Below are positions 14,801-20,768 of a DNA stretch of 60,665 nt, piece by piece. Origin of the DNA: Nitriliruptoraceae bacterium (GTDB lineage Bacteria; Actinomycetota; Nitriliruptoria; Nitriliruptorales; Nitriliruptoraceae); contig SKJX01000102.1 of assembly GCA_007121785.1 (NCBI GenBank), positions 1 through 60,665 of the forward strand, read 5' to 3'. Each line of letters begins with the position of its first letter. Position 1 is the stretch's first letter. The position numbers and the translations under genes were made by a program. The notes under the pieces are model-generated. The model had not been told where the DNA came from. It saw nothing but the letters and a program-made list of their open reading frames with translations, and did not search any database.

Positions 14801-14874
14801 GGGCCGGTAGCTCAGCTGGTCAGAGCAGCGGACTCATAATCCGTCAGGCGCGGGTTCGAGCCCCGCCCGGCCCA
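14801..14874 (+). tRNA. tRNA-Met or tRNA-Ile2 (anticodon CAT)
   Basis: A 74-nt cloverleaf: acceptor GGGCCGG pairs with CCGGCCC, T arm GCGGG-TTCGAGC-CCCGC, anticodon loop CTCATAA with anticodon CAT. The acceptor begins with a paired G-C, so it is not an initiator. Elongator Met and lysidine-modified Ile2 share this anticodon. Elongator Met is the more likely reading but is not proven. CCA is not fully encoded. Confidence 0.93.
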
Positions 14875-14882
14875 CCGACGGG

Positions 14883-15009: not shown

Positions 15010-15558
15010 GTGGTGCCCGAGGCCGACGATCCGCTGACGGCCCTGACCGCCGTCGTCACGGCGTTCGCCGCCGGCCTCCTGGTCCTCGCCGGTGCGATCA
15101 AGGTGCGGGATCCGCGTGCCGCGGCCCTCGCGCTGGGCTTGCGTCGAGGCCCCGGGCGCCCGTGGCTGGCCGGCGGTTTGGGTATCGGGGAGGTGCTGCT
15201 CGGAACGGCCGGGCTGCTCGTCGGTGGCCCGTTCGGTTTCCTCGCACTCGCGGCTGGCCAGGTCGGGTTGCTGGGGACGGCCGCTTCGCGGCGCCGCCAC
15301 GGCCGGTCGTGCGGATGCTTCGGGACGGCGTCACGCGTCGGTGGCGCCCACCTCGTCGTCCTCGCGGTCGGGGCCCTGGCAGCGGTCGGTGCCGCGGCCC
15401 GGTCGGCGCCGACCGCGTTCGGGCTGGTCGTCGTCGACCCGTGGCCGGGGGCGCTGCTGCTCGTCCTGCTAGGGATCGGCGTCGCCCTCATGCGGGTGTT
15501 GATGACCAGCGCCGTGGCGCTGCGCGACGCCGTCGTCCTCGTGGAGGGACCCTCATGA
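15010..15558 (+). CDS. MauE-like (DoxX-related) membrane protein
   Basis: A 182-residue protein with about four to five membrane helices. The first carries LVLAGAIKVRDPRAAA and another LAAGQVGLLGTAASRRR, both usual in MauE. The cysteine pair C101/C103 in RSCGCFGTASRVGG is the MauE signature. In methylotrophs MauE works with MauD to form the many disulfides of the methylamine dehydrogenase light chain. GTG 15010 follows GGAGGAG. It starts the operon, overlaps the MauD-like gene by ATGA, and lies five genes before a MauA-like cysteine-rich protein, which supports a role in disulfide formation. Confidence 0.8.
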   Translation: MVPEADDPLTALTAVVTAFAAGLLVLAGAIKVRDPRAAALALGLRRGPGRPWLAGGLGIGEVLLGTAGLLVGGPFGFLALAAGQVGLLGTAASRRRHGRSCGCFGTASRVGGAHLVVLAVGALAAVGAAARSAPTAFGLVVVDPWPGALLLVLLGIGVALMRVLMTSAVALRDAVVLVEGPS

Positions 15559-16274
15559 CCATCGTCGTCATCGCGCTGTCGGTCGTGGTGTTGCTGCTGA
15601 GCGTGCTCGTGGCCGGGTTGCTGCGCTCGCACGCCACGATCCTGCGCCGGCTGCACGAACTGGGTGTCGGCCTCGAACGCGATCCGGGGACCACCGCGTC
15701 TCCGCAGGTCCCTCGCACCGACGGATCCGTGCCGCCGCCGCGCGATGTCTCCGACGGCCGCCGCGCGCACGACGTGGTCGGTGTCGATCCGACCGGTGCA
15801 GCCATCGGCCTGCGGACCGTGGATGTCGACCACGACACCTTGCTGATGTTCCTCAGCTCCGGCTGCACCTCCTGCGAGGCCTTCTGGTCCGAGTTGGCCG
15901 GCAACGGGTCCATCGACGGCGTCCGCGTCGTGGTCGTCACCCGTGACCTCGCGGAGGAGAGCACCTCGGCGATCCGTGAGCTCGCCCCCGAGGGGGTGAC
16001 CGTGGTCGCCAGCACCGGCGCGTGGAAGGACCTGGAGGTGCCGGGGAGTCCCTACGCCGTGCTGGTCCATGGTCGCAGCGGCCGCGTGGTCGGTGAGGGC
16101 ACCGGGGCGAGCTTCACCCAGGTCAAGGAGCTGTTCCTCCGGTCATCACACGACCACGACGGCAAGGCGCGTGCCGATCAGCGCCGCGAACGTGAGCTCG
16201 ACCGGGTCCTGCTCGACGCCGGGCTCGGTCCCGGTGACCCCAGCCTGTACCGACCACCGACGGAGCCGCGCTGA
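15555..16274 (+). CDS. MauD/TlpA-like membrane-anchored thioredoxin
   Basis: A 239-residue protein. An N-terminal membrane anchor (about residues 2-23) precedes a linker with MauD-like spacing and a thioredoxin domain with active site C104-T-S-C107 (FLSSGCTSCEAFW) and cis-proline VPGSPYAVLV. The active site faces outside, so it is suited to thiol exchange on exported proteins. A charged C-terminal tail is added. The ATG lies within the stop of the MauE-like gene (ATGA), so translation is probably coupled, and GGAGGGAC is the ribosome site. MauD proteins assist folding of disulfide-rich MauA; here the likely client is the cysteine-rich protein at 17473-19050. Confidence 0.8.
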   Translation: MTIVVIALSVVVLLLSVLVAGLLRSHATILRRLHELGVGLERDPGTTASPQVPRTDGSVPPPRDVSDGRRAHDVVGVDPTGAAIGLRTVDVDHDTLLMFLSSGCTSCEAFWSELAGNGSIDGVRVVVVTRDLAEESTSAIRELAPEGVTVVASTGAWKDLEVPGSPYAVLVHGRSGRVVGEGTGASFTQVKELFLRSSHDHDGKARADQRRERELDRVLLDAGLGPGDPSLYRPPTEPR

Positions 16275-16351
16275 TGCCATCGACGGTGCTGCTGGTCCTC
16301 GGGATGGCGGTCGCGCTCCTCGCGGCGCTGCGCAGCGCCTGGTCACCCTGA
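16274..16351 (+). CDS. 25-residue single-pass membrane peptide
   Basis: ATG 16274 overlaps the MauD-like stop by one base (TGATG). The frame codes for 25 residues, MPSTVLLVLGMAVALL followed by AALRSAWSP, then TGA. It is one hydrophobic helix with a short basic tail. It fills exactly the space between the MauD-like gene and the next ribosome site. Codon choice is GC-rich at third positions, as in its neighbours. Small peptides of this type often tune membrane complexes. Existence of the peptide is inferred from operon geometry and composition. Confidence 0.5.
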   Translation: MPSTVLLVLGMAVALLAALRSAWSP

Positions 16352-16360
16352 GGTGAGTCG

Positions 16361-16990
16361 ATGCTGGCCAGCATCTCCCCGGTCGGGGAGGCCGGACGAG
16401 GGCAACGGTGGACCATCACGGTCACGGCCTTCACGCTCGCGTCGACCGCCGCGGGGGCCGCGGTCGGTGGCGCGCTCGGCCTGGCTGGTGCCTGGATCGC
16501 CGGTGCAGCGCTGGTCGGGGCGTGGTCGCCGGCCATCGCCGCGGTCGTGCTCGGTGTGCTCGCGGTGCTCGGCGCCTCGGTCGATGCGGGTCGGCTGCCG
16601 CTCACCGTGCCGAGCTGGCGACGCCAGGTGGACGAGCGGTGGTTGACGTCGTTCCGCGGCTGGGTCTACGGGGCCGGGTTCGGTGCCCAGCTCGGTGCGG
16701 CGGTGCTGACCGTGGTGCCGACCGCCGCCACCTACGTCGCGTTCGGGTCGGCGTTGCTCGTAGCCGGCGTCTCCGGGCAGGCTGTGGCGGGGGCCGCCAT
16801 CGGCGCCACGTTCGGGCTGGGGCGGGCGGTCCCGGTCCTCGCGACCGCCCGCTGGCGCGATCCGGAGCGGCTGCGGGCCTCGTTCCACCGGTTCGACGCC
16901 TCACGGACGCGCGCGGCCACCGCCACGGTCGCCGGACAGCTGGTGGTCGCCGCCGGCGCGGTGGCCCTCGTGCCGTTCGTGGCGAGCTGA
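16361..16990 (+). CDS. Polytopic membrane protein of the Mau-like operon
   Basis: A 209-residue protein with about five or six hydrophobic segments separated by short charged loops (PSWRRQVDERWL, ARWRDPERLRASFHRFDASRTR). The start MLASISPVGEAGRGQRW and the Gly/Ala-rich helices recall CcdA-like or MauF-like membrane proteins, but the redox cysteines of CcdA are absent. AGGTGAG precedes ATG. Placed between the MauD-like gene and the cysteine-rich exported protein, it may belong to the same assembly or export function. The family assignment is weak. Confidence 0.6.
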   Translation: MLASISPVGEAGRGQRWTITVTAFTLASTAAGAAVGGALGLAGAWIAGAALVGAWSPAIAAVVLGVLAVLGASVDAGRLPLTVPSWRRQVDERWLTSFRGWVYGAGFGAQLGAAVLTVVPTAATYVAFGSALLVAGVSGQAVAGAAIGATFGLGRAVPVLATARWRDPERLRASFHRFDASRTRAATATVAGQLVVAAGAVALVPFVAS

Positions 16991-16999
16991 GGAGGCCGG

Positions 17000-17476
17000 A
17001 TGTACCTGGAGTCGCACGGGATCGCCGCTGACCTGCCCCCCGGATGGGAGGGCTCGATCGAGGTGGAACGCGACCCGGACGCGGTCAGCCTCGCCGAGCT
17101 CGGCGGGGTGCTGCGACCGGTCACCCACCTCGGCACCTTCCCCCTGCCGCGCGACCGGGGCGACTTCGGCAGCGGCGCCGTGGACGTGATGGGCGGCGAG
17201 GACGCGTTCATCGCCCTGGTGGAGTACGACCCGGCCGAAGCCTCCAGCGAGTTGTTCGCCTCCCGCGGCCTCCCGCGGTCACTGGATCCACGCGCGTTCA
17301 GCTCCCAGGCGCTCCAACGCCAGCGTGGCCGCCAGGCTGGATGGCAGGGGTTCTTCAACGAGGGCGGCCGGGCCTTCTGCCTGTACGTCGTCCTCGGCGA
17401 TCTCGACGACCTGCACCTGCTGGCCCGCAAGGTCGAGCAGGTCTTGGCCGGGATCCGCGTCGAGGTGGAGCGATGA
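17000..17476 (+). CDS. Unknown soluble protein of the Mau-like operon
   Basis: A 158-residue protein without signal peptide or membrane segment. Near the start it reads LPPGWEGSIEVER, followed by a conserved-looking GTFPLPRDRGDFGSGAVDVMGGEDAFIAL split over two strands, and ends with a helix LHLLARKVEQVLAGI. I do not recognise the family. GGAGG lies shortly before ATG, the gene is nine bases after the preceding stop, and its own stop overlaps the next ATG (ATGA). It is thus fixed in the operon and may be a cytoplasmic chaperone or regulator for the Tat substrate encoded next; that role is only a guess from position. Confidence 0.65.
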   Translation: MYLESHGIAADLPPGWEGSIEVERDPDAVSLAELGGVLRPVTHLGTFPLPRDRGDFGSGAVDVMGGEDAFIALVEYDPAEASSELFASRGLPRSLDPRAFSSQALQRQRGRQAGWQGFFNEGGRAFCLYVVLGDLDDLHLLARKVEQVLAGIRVEVER

Positions 17477-19050
17477 ACACGACCAGGCGACGGTTCGTGG
17501 ACCGCGCGGTGGACCGGGTCAGCACCCGGCTCGGGCGCCGCGACGCGGACCGCCCGGGCCTGACCCGGCGCAGCTTCCTGGTCCGGGCCGCCGTGGTCGG
17601 CTCCGCGCTGACGATCGCCCCCTTGCGGTGGATGGTCCGTCCGACGAGCGCGTACGCGTCGGTCTGCGGCGAGGGTGCGGCCTGCAACCAGGGATGGACG
17701 GCGTTCTGCTGCACGATCAACGAGGGGGCCAACACCTGCCCACCGGGCTCGTTCGTGGCGGGCTGGTGGAAGATCGACCGGTCGCCGTTCTGCGAGGGCG
17801 CGCCGCGCTACATCATCGACTGCAACCGCTCACCCGGCTCGAGCTGTCGGTGCCGATGCGCGAGCGGCACCTGCGATCAGCGGCGGGTCTGCTGCAACGT
17901 CTTCCGGTACGGCCAGTGCAACACCCAGATCGGCGGGGTCACCGAGGTGGTCTGTCGGGTCGTGTTGTGCACCGCGCCGTGGGTGTGGGATCCGGCGTGC
18001 GGCCGGACGGTGCGGACGGACAACCGGACCCGGACCCACAACGCGCCGTGCCTCTACGACCGTGACGCGACCGTGATCGAGCGGTCCTACCAGGACCTCG
18101 GCCTCAACGGGTCCGAGCTGGGTGAACCGGTGGGATCGGAGCGGTCCGGGCCGCGGGGTGGTGCCTGGCAGGTCTACGACCACGGCGTGCTCGCCTGGCA
18201 CACCGCGATCGGGGTGCTCGTGCTGCGTGACGCGATCGCGCGGCGCTACGCCGAGCTCGATGGGCCATCCGGCGCGCTCGGCTACCCCCGGGACGAGGGC
18301 GAGACGATCGACGGGGGCGTCTCCCGCACCAGGTTCGAGCGGGGAGCGATGTACGGCGTCGGCGACGACGCGTTCGCCCTGTTCGGCCCCGCCGCCGCCC
18401 GCTACGAACGACTGGACGGTCCCGTTGGCACGTTGGGGGCCCCGACGGCCGGGACCGAGCCGGTCGGCGATGGTCGCGGCTCGGTGACCCGTTTCGAGAA
18501 CGGCGCGATCTACGCCTCTGGTCAGGGGGCCCAGCCGGTGCAGGCGCCGTACCTCGCGACCTACGAACAGCTGGGTGGTCCCGCCGACGGTCCGCTCGGC
18601 TACCCGATCGGACCGTCCGAGGACGGCCAGCAACGCTTCGCCCGCGGCGTGCTCGTCGCCAGCGGTGACGGGGCCTTCGCGTTGTGGGGCCCCATCGCCG
18701 ACCGGTACCTGGCGTTGGACGGTCGCGACGGCCCCTGGGGTCCCCTGCAGGAGTCCCAGACCACCGAGGCGGGGGTCGACGTGGCCCGGTTCGCCGCGGT
18801 CACGGTCTTCGCGGCCGGGTCGATCGGGGCCAGGGCGCTCGACGGCCGGGTGCTGGAGACCTACCTCGATGAGGGGGGACCGGCCGGTGACCTCGGCGCG
18901 CCGACCACCGACCGCTTCCGGACCCGCACCGGCCAGCAGCGTGCCGGGTTCGAGCACGGCGCGATCGAACTCGACCCGGGTGCGTCGAGCCCGCGGGTGC
19001 TGCGGTTCCGCTCGACCCGTCGCGCCAACGACCTCACGATCACACCGTAA
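17473..19050 (+). CDS. Tat-exported cysteine-rich MauA-like protein with LGFP repeats
   Basis: A 525-residue protein. A twin-arginine signal TRRSFLV (31-37) precedes a hydrophobic stretch ending near residue 62. Residues 65-193 hold 18 cysteines and resemble the methylamine dehydrogenase light chain: CPPGS at 89-93, GWW at 97-99, YIIDCN at 113-118, CRCRC at 125-129, and CTAP at 166-169. In MauA two tryptophans form the TTQ cofactor. The first seems present (W98/W99); the second position looks like V160 before C161, although W170 and W172 are nearby. From about 205 to the end run LGFP-type repeats (GALGYP, GTLGAP, GPLGYP, GDLGAP with RFERGAMY and similar), which tether proteins to the cell envelope. 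MauE- and MauD-like genes lie upstream in the same operon. A heavy chain and MauG are absent here. Probably a disulfide-rich surface protein and not a classical amine dehydrogenase. Confidence 0.75.
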   Translation: MNTTRRRFVDRAVDRVSTRLGRRDADRPGLTRRSFLVRAAVVGSALTIAPLRWMVRPTSAYASVCGEGAACNQGWTAFCCTINEGANTCPPGSFVAGWWKIDRSPFCEGAPRYIIDCNRSPGSSCRCRCASGTCDQRRVCCNVFRYGQCNTQIGGVTEVVCRVVLCTAPWVWDPACGRTVRTDNRTRTHNAPCLYDRDATVIERSYQDLGLNGSELGEPVGSERSGPRGGAWQVYDHGVLAWHTAIGVLVLRDAIARRYAELDGPSGALGYPRDEGETIDGGVSRTRFERGAMYGVGDDAFALFGPAAARYERLDGPVGTLGAPTAGTEPVGDGRGSVTRFENGAIYASGQGAQPVQAPYLATYEQLGGPADGPLGYPIGPSEDGQQRFARGVLVASGDGAFALWGPIADRYLALDGRDGPWGPLQESQTTEAGVDVARFAAVTVFAAGSIGARALDGRVLETYLDEGGPAGDLGAPTTDRFRTRTGQQRAGFEHGAIELDPGASSPRVLRFRSTRRANDLTITP

Positions 19051-19059
19051 GGGATGCCC

Positions 19060-19710
19060 ATGCGATCAACCCGCCCATGGCTGTTGGCTGGAGCGCTCGT
19101 CAGCGTGGCGCTCCTCGCCCCAGCGGCAGCGGCGACCGACGGGTTCCAGGATGTCTCACCGGGATCGCCGCACGCTGCGGCGATCGATGAACTCGTCGAA
19201 AGCGCCATCACGTCGGGCTGCGCACCGGGCGAGTTCTGTCCCGGTGACGACGTCCGACGTGACCAGATGGCGTCGTTCCTCGCGCGGTCGGCGCCCCGGT
19301 CACGAGGATCGTCGGGGGTGACCACGCTCACCGACGCCAACGGGTTCGACGGGGTACCCACCGCGGTGACCGTGGACACGACGGGAGCGACGGGCGGGAC
19401 CTCGACGGTCACCGTGCTGGGGACGGTGACGGTGTTCGCCGACGGCGACGTCTCCTCGTGCCCGTGCGAGGTGGAGGCGTTCATCTTCCGGGCGGAGGAT
19501 GAGTCGCAGGGCCCGTCGAGTTGGGCGCAGCTGCCGGGCGAGTCGACCGGGAGCGGATCCGCGGTGACCTCGCTGCCCGTGGCCTGGACCGTCGAGGTGC
19601 CAAGCGGGACCGAGCAGGAGTTCCGCGTCGCGGTGTTCCTCAACGACGGTTCACCCGGCGAGGCCCGTGCGGAGGCGACCGTCTCGGCGACCACGACCGC
19701 GATGCGTTGA
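19060..19710 (+). CDS. Secreted protein with one Cys-containing SLH-like repeat
   Basis: About 216 residues. ATG 19060 is preferred because AAGGGA then sits six bases upstream; ATG 19054 is the alternative. A signal peptide ends near APAAAA. One SLH-like repeat follows, GFQDVSPGSPHAAAIDEL to RRDQMASFLARS, with two cysteines in SGCAPGEFCPGDD. The rest is a beta-rich, Thr/Val-rich domain with a CPC pair (SSCPCEVEAF). It is probably exported and envelope-associated. It comes right after the MauA-like gene and could be part of the same transcript, making it another possible client of the thiol-exchange proteins. Confidence 0.7.
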   Translation: MRSTRPWLLAGALVSVALLAPAAAATDGFQDVSPGSPHAAAIDELVESAITSGCAPGEFCPGDDVRRDQMASFLARSAPRSRGSSGVTTLTDANGFDGVPTAVTVDTTGATGGTSTVTVLGTVTVFADGDVSSCPCEVEAFIFRAEDESQGPSSWAQLPGESTGSGSAVTSLPVAWTVEVPSGTEQEFRVAVFLNDGSPGEARAEATVSATTTAMR

Positions 19711-19763: not shown

Positions 19764-20768
19764 CTAGCGCCAGCCGAAGGAGCGTGTGCACGCGGGCCAC
19801 TGACCCCAGCCGGAGCGCTGCTGGAGGATGTGGCCGCGGTAGATCTGCTCCTCCTTGGAAGCCTGGTGTGGGTAGCCGGTGCCGCCGACGCTCTGCCACG
19901 TGCTGAGCATGAACTGCAGCCCGCCGTAGAACCCGTTGCCGGTGTTGATGCTCCAGTTGCCGTTCGACTCGCACTGCGCGAGCCGTTCGAACATCGCGAC
20001 CCGGTCCGGCGGGACGTAGAACCGCTCTGCCTCGCGCGCCTCCTGCTCCTGCTGTTCGCGACGCTCCTGCTCCTCGCGCTCCTGCTCCTCGCGCTCGCGC
20101 TGCTCGTCGATCTCGTCCTGTTCGGCGCGGCGGTCCTCGTACGGGTCCATCGAGACCGGGTCGACCAGATCCATGGTGCGGGCGAGGAACAACGCGGCCT
20201 GCCAGCGCAGCACCTCGTCGCCGGGGCAGAAGGAGACGAGGCTCTCCGAGCAGCCGGCGGTGACGCCCGCCTGTGCAAGGGCCTCGATGGCCGGCTGGTG
20301 CGCCCCCTCGATGTCGTCGAAGAAGCGTTCACCGTTCTCCACATCGTCGATGAGGAACGCCCGTTGGAGCAGCGAGGCGAGTTGCCCCCGCGTGACGGTG
20401 TCGGATGGACAGAACGACTCCTCGGTACATCCCGTGGTTATCCCCGCATCGGCGATCGCGGTGATGGCGCCCTCGTGCACGCTGCCTTCGACGTCATCGA
20501 ACGGGGCACTCCCACGGTCGAGCGACAGTCCTCTCGCGCGGGCCAGCATGCTGGCCATCTGGCCGCGGGTGACCGCATCATCAGTGCAGAAGCGGTCGTC
20601 CTCGCAGCCACGGAGGACGTCGGCGCGGGTGAGTTCCTCGACCGCCTCCTCGTAGGAGGTGCCAGCGGTGTCGCTGTAGGTCGCGGTGTCCGCGACGGCG
20701 GGGGAGAGCGGTAGCAGCAAGCCGAGCAGGAGCGCTGGCAGCGTGAAGAGGAGACGGCGTGCAGTCAC
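19764..20768 (-). CDS. Triple-SLH, coiled-coil Rpf-like transglycosylase
   Basis: A 334-residue exported protein. The signal peptide ends at about AVADT (residue 26). Three SLH-like repeats follow, each with a cysteine pair: RGCEDDRFCTDD, TGCTEESFCPSD and AGCSESLVSFCPGDE, each before a (T)RGQMASMLARA-type helix. A Glu/Arg/Gln coiled coil (about 210-250) leads to the C-terminal Rpf domain with AQCESNGNWSINTGNG, whose CES glutamate is the catalytic residue of Rpf enzymes. It should be bound to the wall by the SLH part and cut peptidoglycan. GTG 20768 overlaps the stop of a small upstream frame (GTGA). Confidence 0.85.
   Translation of the reverse strand: MTARRLLFTLPALLLGLLLPLSPAVADTATYSDTAGTSYEEAVEELTRADVLRGCEDDRFCTDDAVTRGQMASMLARARGLSLDRGSAPFDDVEGSVHEGAITAIADAGITTGCTEESFCPSDTVTRGQLASLLQRAFLIDDVENGERFFDDIEGAHQPAIEALAQAGVTAGCSESLVSFCPGDEVLRWQAALFLARTMDLVDPVSMDPYEDRRAEQDEIDEQREREEQEREEQERREQQEQEAREAERFYVPPDRVAMFERLAQCESNGNWSINTGNGFYGGLQFMLSTWQSVGGTGYPHQASKEEQIYRGHILQQRSGWGQWPACTRSFGWR

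What the first reader, a model, noticed from the sequence alone, without database searches (positions are those of the whole stretch)
15010..19050. MauE/MauD-like operon ending in a Tat-exported MauA-like protein fused to LGFP repeats
Seen: six genes with overlaps or gaps of at most about 10 bases. They comprise a MauE-like protein with the CGCFG pair, a membrane-anchored CTSC thioredoxin, a 25-residue peptide, a polytopic membrane protein, an unknown protein, and a 525-residue Tat substrate with 18 cysteines in a MauA-like module (CPPGS...GWW...YIID...CRCRC...CTAP) followed by LGFP envelope repeats. Known: in methylotrophs MauE and MauD are needed to fold the disulfide-rich MauA light chain. 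Inference: the assembly part of the methylamine-dehydrogenase system has been reused to build a disulfide-rich cell-surface protein. No MauB heavy chain and no MauG are in the window.
Basis: partly seen in the sequence, partly recalled or inferred. Interest (0 to 1): 0.85.

Follow-up and report, generated by a model that had tools for sequence, protein, structure and literature searches.

The report
Selenoprotein MauF assembling a disulfide-rich surface protein
This gene cluster reuses the membrane machinery that folds an amine-oxidising enzyme to build a different, disulfide-rich protein on the outside of actinobacterial cells, and what looked like a tiny extra gene is the start of a machinery protein (MauF) that is read through a stop codon by inserting selenocysteine, the 21st amino acid.

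Summary
The cluster at 15010-19050 is real and widely conserved in Actinomycetota, but it has five genes, not six. The "25-residue peptide" and the "polytopic membrane protein" are one gene (16274-16990), a MauF homologue with an in-frame TGA at 16349-16351 (WSP-U-GESM). Paracoccus MauF and 18 relatives have Cys at that codon; 63 of 81 loci have TGA. Evidence that the TGA encodes selenocysteine: a SECIS-type hairpin preserved beyond what codon usage explains, only in TGA genes; selA, selB and tRNA-Sec in this genome; tRNA-Sec in 22/22 TGA-type versus 4/13 Cys-type genomes; selA/selD beside the operon in three relatives. A 2026 catalogue of 119 prokaryotic selenoprotein families has no MauF. 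So the operon carries the complete MauE-MauD-MauF assembly set and its likely client is the Tat-exported 18-Cys protein. That module fails the MauA HMM and lacks the second TTQ tryptophan; MauA kinship rests on synteny, a weak profile match (p about 0.04) and Foldseek ranking MauA-family light chains first (E>0.5). Its C-terminal repeats vary (LGFP, FG-GAP, RCC1-like, ricin-type); some stand-alone versions neighbour a separate propeller gene, recalling MauA plus MauB. Most likely a selenium-dependent disulfide-assembly line for an envelope protein whose own function is unknown.

The parts
15010..15558 (+). mauE homologue (182 aa, GTG start, CGCFG motif)
   Evidence: PF07291 34.6 bits, cut-off 27; family HMM hits P. 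denitrificans MauE, 46.8 bits
15555..16274 (+). mauD homologue (239 aa, N-terminal membrane helix, CTSC thioredoxin motif)
   Evidence: TIGR02661 E=5e-5, below cut-off; family HMM hits MauD of Pseudomonas (58 bits) and Paracoccus (39 bits)
   Evidence: HMM of the downstream part hits P. denitrificans MauF, 66.6 bits; in-frame TGA/Cys alignment in 81 loci; AlphaFold2 pLDDT 95.5, pTM 0.91 for the whole protein
16349..16351 (+). TGA codon for selenocysteine in WSP-U-GESM
   Evidence: TGA in 63 of 81 loci, Cys in 18; P. denitrificans MauF has WSPCG
16374..16391 (+). SECIS-type hairpin (stem 7, loop GGUC, 29 nt after the TGA)
   Evidence: fits the published bSECIS constraints; stems longer than a synonymous-codon null in TGA-type genes only
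16360..16375 (+). second hairpin GATGCT-GGCC-AGCATC; its 3' arm needs an AGC serine codon
   Evidence: AGC in 46/46 TGA-type versus 1/18 Cys-type genes; 96% of cells paired, no covariation
17000..17476 (+). conserved operon protein without a named family (158 aa, motif GRAFCLYVVLG)
   Evidence: found in 96 of 105 sequences surveyed (with duplicates); no significant Pfam or NCBIfam match
17473..19050 (+). Tat-exported client protein (525 aa): signal, 18-Cys module, LGFP repeats
   Evidence: TIGR01409 Tat signal and PF08310 LGFP x6
17665..18051 (+). 18-cysteine module (residues 65-193)
   Evidence: conserved in 29/66 class genomes and 31/397 phylum genomes; Foldseek ranks aromatic amine dehydrogenase light chains first, not significant
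19054..19710 (+). exported protein with a weak SLH-like domain, next to the operon in Nitriliruptoraceae only
   Evidence: adjacent homologues; PF00395 below cut-off

Best explanation
The operon (mauE, mauD, mauF, a conserved unknown, client) is a dedicated extracytoplasmic disulfide-assembly line. The client leaves through Tat carrying an 18-Cys module and is displayed on the envelope by C-terminal repeats (LGFP here). MauF is a CcdA-like membrane protein whose only redox residue is selenocysteine 26, inserted at a TGA by a SECIS hairpin, SelA, SelB and tRNA-Sec. Inferred: MauF passes reducing equivalents across the membrane, or to and from the membrane-anchored thioredoxin MauD (CTSC), while MauE (CGCFG) supplies or removes electrons, so that MauD can form and reshuffle the client's disulfides as MauE/MauD are thought to do for MauA. 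Shown by sequence: the five-gene unit, MauE/D/F homology, selenocysteine signature and machinery, Tat signal, LGFP. Inferred: direction of electron flow, client folding by MauEDF, MauA ancestry of the module, role of the 158-aa protein.
For: MauF homology. TGA in 63 and Cys in 18 of 81 loci at one codon, no other stop there, constant frame. AGC codon 46/46 versus 1/18. SECIS-type stems: mean 6.93 versus synonymous null 4.89 (maximum 5.39 in 200) for TGA-type; 3.89 versus 3.81 for Cys-type; 7 compensatory cells in one stem pair, 0/500 shuffles. Own genome has tRNA-Sec (67 bits), SelB (255 bits) and SelA (499 bits). tRNA-Sec in 22/22 TGA-type versus 4/13 Cys-type genomes, p=1e-5. selA and selD beside the operon in L075, L106, L114; selB-like genes in L075 and L106. 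Whole MauF model pLDDT 95.5 with the first helix confident; closest fold CcdA 5vkv. Module, MauE, MauD, MauF and the unknown gene stay together even when reordered.
Against: No expression or mass-spectrometry data. MauF has one redox residue whereas CcdA/DsbD use two cysteines, and the CcdA match is only E=0.07. Some loci lack a nearby mauF (e.g. L080, L084, L088), so the module may not always need it. Relatives share ancestry, so TGA and codon counts are not independent events. The first hairpin shows no covariation. Module-MauA kinship is not significant by sequence.
Confidence: 0.8

Rival explanations
1. The 25-codon ORF and the 209-codon ORF are two genes: a membrane micropeptide and a shorter MauF-like protein starting at ATG 16361.
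For: An ORF finder gives a separate 209-codon ORF here, and its ATG follows three codons after the TGA.
Against: The ORFs are always in one frame separated by one TGA, never TAA or TAG, and 18 relatives have a sense Cys codon there; SECIS-type hairpin only in TGA-type genes; TGA-type genomes all carry tRNA-Sec; the joined protein is modelled with high confidence.
Confidence: 0.04
2. The TGA is read through as Cys or Trp, or by leaky termination, without selenium.
For: Readthrough would also keep the frame and the Cys alignment.
Against: Genes in the same operon end in TGA; all 22 TGA-type genomes tested have tRNA-Sec and SelB, with two SelB scores slightly under the curated cut-off; hairpin constraints match the published bSECIS model.
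Confidence: 0.03
3. The Cys module is not related to MauA; it is an independent disulfide-rich envelope domain that recruited MauEDF.
For: No HMM match, profile-profile p about 0.04, low TM-scores, TTQ tryptophan missing.
Against: Shared gene neighbourhood and Tat-type signal with mauA operons, motif order CPPG...W...Y-I-D-C...C in register over the whole length, MauA-family light chains as top Foldseek hits.
Confidence: 0.35
4. The client is a redox enzyme with a protein-derived cofactor on the invariant Trp (GWW) and Asp, with the propeller-like tail or neighbour acting as heavy chain.
For: Invariant W42 and D59 of the module alignment; separate PD40 propeller gene beside stand-alone versions; MADH pairs MauA with a propeller heavy chain (own knowledge).
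Against: Second TTQ Trp is Gln/Asn; no PF06433 (control silent) and no MauG family in 12 genomes; tails are diverse and include ricin-type and other repeats.
Confidence: 0.12

Closest known systems
mau operon of Paracoccus denitrificans (mauF-B-E-D-A-...)
   Same: MauE, MauD and MauF homologues with an exported, disulfide-rich client bearing a twin-arginine signal in one operon.
   Different: Selenocysteine in place of the MauF Cys; no MauB, MauG, MauJ or amicyanin in the operon; client fused to LGFP repeats and lacking the second TTQ Trp; extra 158-aa protein.
Thermomicrobium roseum plasmid cluster (NC_011961, about 476-488 kb)
   Same: MauE, MauD-like and MauF homologues, and its MauF also has an in-frame TGA (WSP-U-GYSM) missed by the annotation.
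   Different: Two light chains that match the MauA family and keep both Trp positions, plus separate large propeller-like proteins (inferred from sequence).
CcdA membrane electron transporter (PDB 5vkv)
   Same: Best structural match of the MauF model (Foldseek prob 0.89); an SPC-type motif at the first helix is a resemblance recalled from memory.
   Different: E=0.07 only; MauF has one Sec/Cys, CcdA two Cys (own knowledge); no Pfam match.
MauE/MauD-encoding candidate RiPP clusters in Streptomyces (PMC7794033)
   Same: mau assembly genes reused outside methylamine metabolism.
   Different: Different clients; no MauF or selenocysteine in the passages read.
Corynebacterial PS1 protein (LGFP repeats, 6sx4)
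   Same: LGFP repeat region matches by sequence.
   Different: The match covers the repeats only; the Cys module is outside it.

Membership tests
Selenoproteins | In-frame TGA aligned with Cys of homologues | tested here: met
   63 TGA and 18 Cys of 81 loci; P. denitrificans MauF has Cys
Selenoproteins | SECIS-type hairpin downstream of the TGA | tested here: met
   stem 7, loop GGUC, spacing 29; beyond synonymous null; limited covariation
Selenoproteins | SelA, SelB and tRNA-Sec in the genome | tested here: met
Selenoproteins | Selenium found in the protein | not testable with these tools
   needs selenium-75 labelling or mass spectrometry
MauF | Sequence homology to the annotated P. denitrificans MauF | tested here: met
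   66.6 bits, E=2e-21 among 17 sequences; hhalign probability 97.5
MauE (PF07291) | Score above curated cut-off | tested here: met
   34.6 versus 27 bits
MauD (TIGR02661) | Score above equivalog cut-off | tested here: not met
   22.9 versus 188.6 bits; homologous but not an equivalog
MauA / Me-amine-dh_L (PF02975) | HMM match | tested here: not met
   none of 23 members; 0 of 397 genomes over cut-off
MauA / Me-amine-dh_L (PF02975) | MauA fold | tested here: inconclusive
   light chains rank 1, 2, 3, 5, 6, 8 but E 0.6-3.7, TM 0.24-0.29; model pLDDT 62
MauA / Me-amine-dh_L (PF02975) | Two Trp that form TTQ | tested here: not met
   first Trp present (GWW), second is Gln/Asn in FRYG[QN]C; placement of the second rests on the weak alignment
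Methylamine dehydrogenase system | MauB heavy chain and MauG | tested here: inconclusive
   neither family found in 12 genomes; MauG control rang, MauB control did not
CcdA/DsbD | CcdA fold with two redox Cys | tested here: inconclusive
   top fold hit 5vkv, E=0.07; only one redox residue in the window protein
LGFP repeat proteins (PF08310) | Score above cut-off | tested here: met
   107.6 bits, six stretches

The most novel reading that the evidence does not exclude
Actinobacteria use a selenium-dependent MauEDF system, with a CcdA-like selenoprotein as electron gate, to mature a family of MauA-derived modules that form a new, non-TTQ redox cofactor on a propeller scaffold.
Probability: 0.12. 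Interest if true: 0.95.

Novelty: new variant of a known kind. Interest (0 to 1): 0.82.

Why it matters
MauF has no established function (own knowledge). Natural Cys/Sec exchange at one residue marks that residue as its reactive centre and makes the role of MauF directly testable. It also appears to add a selenoprotein family found in about a sixth of the Actinomycetota genomes sampled (66 of 397, most hits with a TGA), which automatic annotation would split at the TGA and which a 2026 catalogue omits. It links selenium use to envelope protein folding.

Tried and rejected
PF02975, Pfam, NCBIfam and PDB sequence searches of the Cys module: no match. Profile-profile comparison with nine proteobacterial and two Thermomicrobium light chains: p about 0.04 against column permutations. 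DsbD_2 hit of the downstream MauF part (E=0.024) vanished with the whole protein. One-TGA flags inside stand-alone Cys genes were their normal stop codons where inspected (L174, L177). Plasmid tblastn with MauF found nothing. Pfam and NCBIfam searches of the 158-aa protein: nothing significant. Literature searches for selenoprotein MauF gave only irrelevant papers.
Full report
What is in the window. The window lies on a 60.7-kb contig of a 3.8-Mb, 88% complete genome; its nearest named relatives are Nitriliruptoraceae MAGs. After a tRNA-Met gene (14801-14876), a + strand operon runs from 15010 to 19050. MauE is a Pfam match over cut-off, the last gene has six LGFP stretches and a Tat signal, and its residues 65-193 hold 18 cysteines.

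Conservation. The Cys module is found in 29 of 66 genomes of the class and 31 of 397 of the phylum. Named relatives include Nakamurella, Pedococcus, Phycicoccus, Kineosphaera, Acidimicrobiia and Solirubrobacterales. In 105 sequences surveyed (some are the same locus from two sources) MauE occurs in 88, MauD in 95, the membrane protein in 81 and the 158-aa protein in 96, and they stay together even when the order changes.

The membrane protein is MauF. An HMM built from the family hits P. denitrificans MauF at 66.6 bits and the Thermomicrobium homologue at 48.9 bits; the next sequence scores 3.7. So the operon has all three membrane assembly factors of the mau system (compare).

The TGA. The 25-codon ORF ends WSP-TGA and the next ORF continues in frame as GESMLASISP. 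P. denitrificans MauF reads WSPCGYSS. Of 81 loci, 63 have TGA and 18 have a Cys codon there, counting the YSPC and SSPC variants; none has TAA or TAG. In the phylum sample the MauF profile hits 66 of 397 genomes, most with one TGA; inspected weaker subfamilies have the TGA or Cys at the same place, mostly with MauE/MauD nearby.

Selenocysteine evidence. The codon forming the 3' arm of a hairpin is AGC in 46 of 46 TGA-type and 1 of 18 Cys-type genes, while AGC is 34% of serine codons in the TGA-type operons. A second hairpin fits the published bacterial SECIS constraints (PMC13188914): in the window stem 7, loop GGUC, spacing 29. Mean best stem is 6.93 against 4.89 (maximum 5.39) in 200 synonymous recodings for TGA-type genes, and 3.89 against 3.81 for Cys-type genes. 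One stem pair shows seven compensatory cells in the non-Nitriliruptoraceae class; the window's class and the first hairpin show none. The own genome has tRNA-Sec, SelB and SelA, the last two adjacent. Counting matches of at least 56 bits, tRNA-Sec is in all 22 TGA-type genomes tested and in 4 of 13 Cys-type; one further Cys-type genome (L128) has SelA and SelB. In L075, L106 and L114 selA and selD lie beside the operon, with selB-like genes in the first two. The 119-family catalogue of 2026 contains no MauF, CcdA or mau entry, nor does any NCBIfam model match the protein.

Structure. The whole MauF is modelled at pLDDT 95.5, pTM 0.91, the first helix included. Its best PDB match is the electron transporter CcdA (prob 0.89, E=0.07). 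That supports, without proving, a thiol/selenol electron-transfer role.

The client. The Cys module has no HMM match. Profile comparison with MauA aligns the two over their full length in register but only at p about 0.04. The AlphaFold model is moderate (pLDDT 62); Foldseek places aromatic amine dehydrogenase light chains at ranks 1, 2, 3, 5, 6 and 8 of 350,542 chains, though with E 0.6-3.7. The first TTQ Trp position is kept and the second is Gln or Asn, so canonical TTQ is not expected. Tails vary: LGFP, FG-GAP, RCC1-like, ricin-type and others. Stand-alone versions in L110 and L119 have a separate PD40 propeller gene downstream, with a weaker PD40 match in L125, which recalls the MauA-MauB pair. 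That parallel is my inference.

Mechanism. In P. denitrificans MauE and MauD are essential for methylamine metabolism and are linked to maturation of the disulfide-rich light chain (van der Palen 1997, as cited in PMC7794033). I propose that MauF (Sec26), MauD (CTSC) and MauE (CGCFG) form an electron relay that makes and corrects the client's disulfides after Tat export. Client identity and electron direction are inferred.

Noticed in passing
L136 (NC_011961.1 about 479.2-479.4 kb, reverse strand): Thermomicrobium roseum mauF-like gene also has an in-frame TGA (MTLWLVPLALASGCSALWSP-U-GYSM) that the annotation skips; it sits beside two MauA-family light chains, one of them unannotated.
   Followed up: partly
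L203-L216: Further MauF subfamilies with SP/GP-U-GLSMVETITP or SP-U-GLSVTETVTP, most near MauE/MauD homologues and without this Cys module: a broader selenoprotein family.
   Followed up: partly
L206:5101-6492 and L207:4846-6243: Different Cys-rich protein (TF.C...WGWCWYASGCCADG...YCPSGT) next to a TGA-type mauF; possibly another client.
   Followed up: no
L075:1457-5608, L106:5398-8254, L114:10436-12777: selA and selD (and selB-like genes in L075 and L106) lie directly beside the operon.
   Followed up: yes
L074:6766-9873: Orphan Cys-module gene with a ricin-type tail and no mau genes in the held DNA; same isolate (YX2bin23) as L072, which has the full operon.
   Followed up: no
window 19054-19710 and 19764-20768: Two related exported SLH-like proteins on opposite strands; the first follows the operon in Nitriliruptoraceae.
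   Followed up: partly
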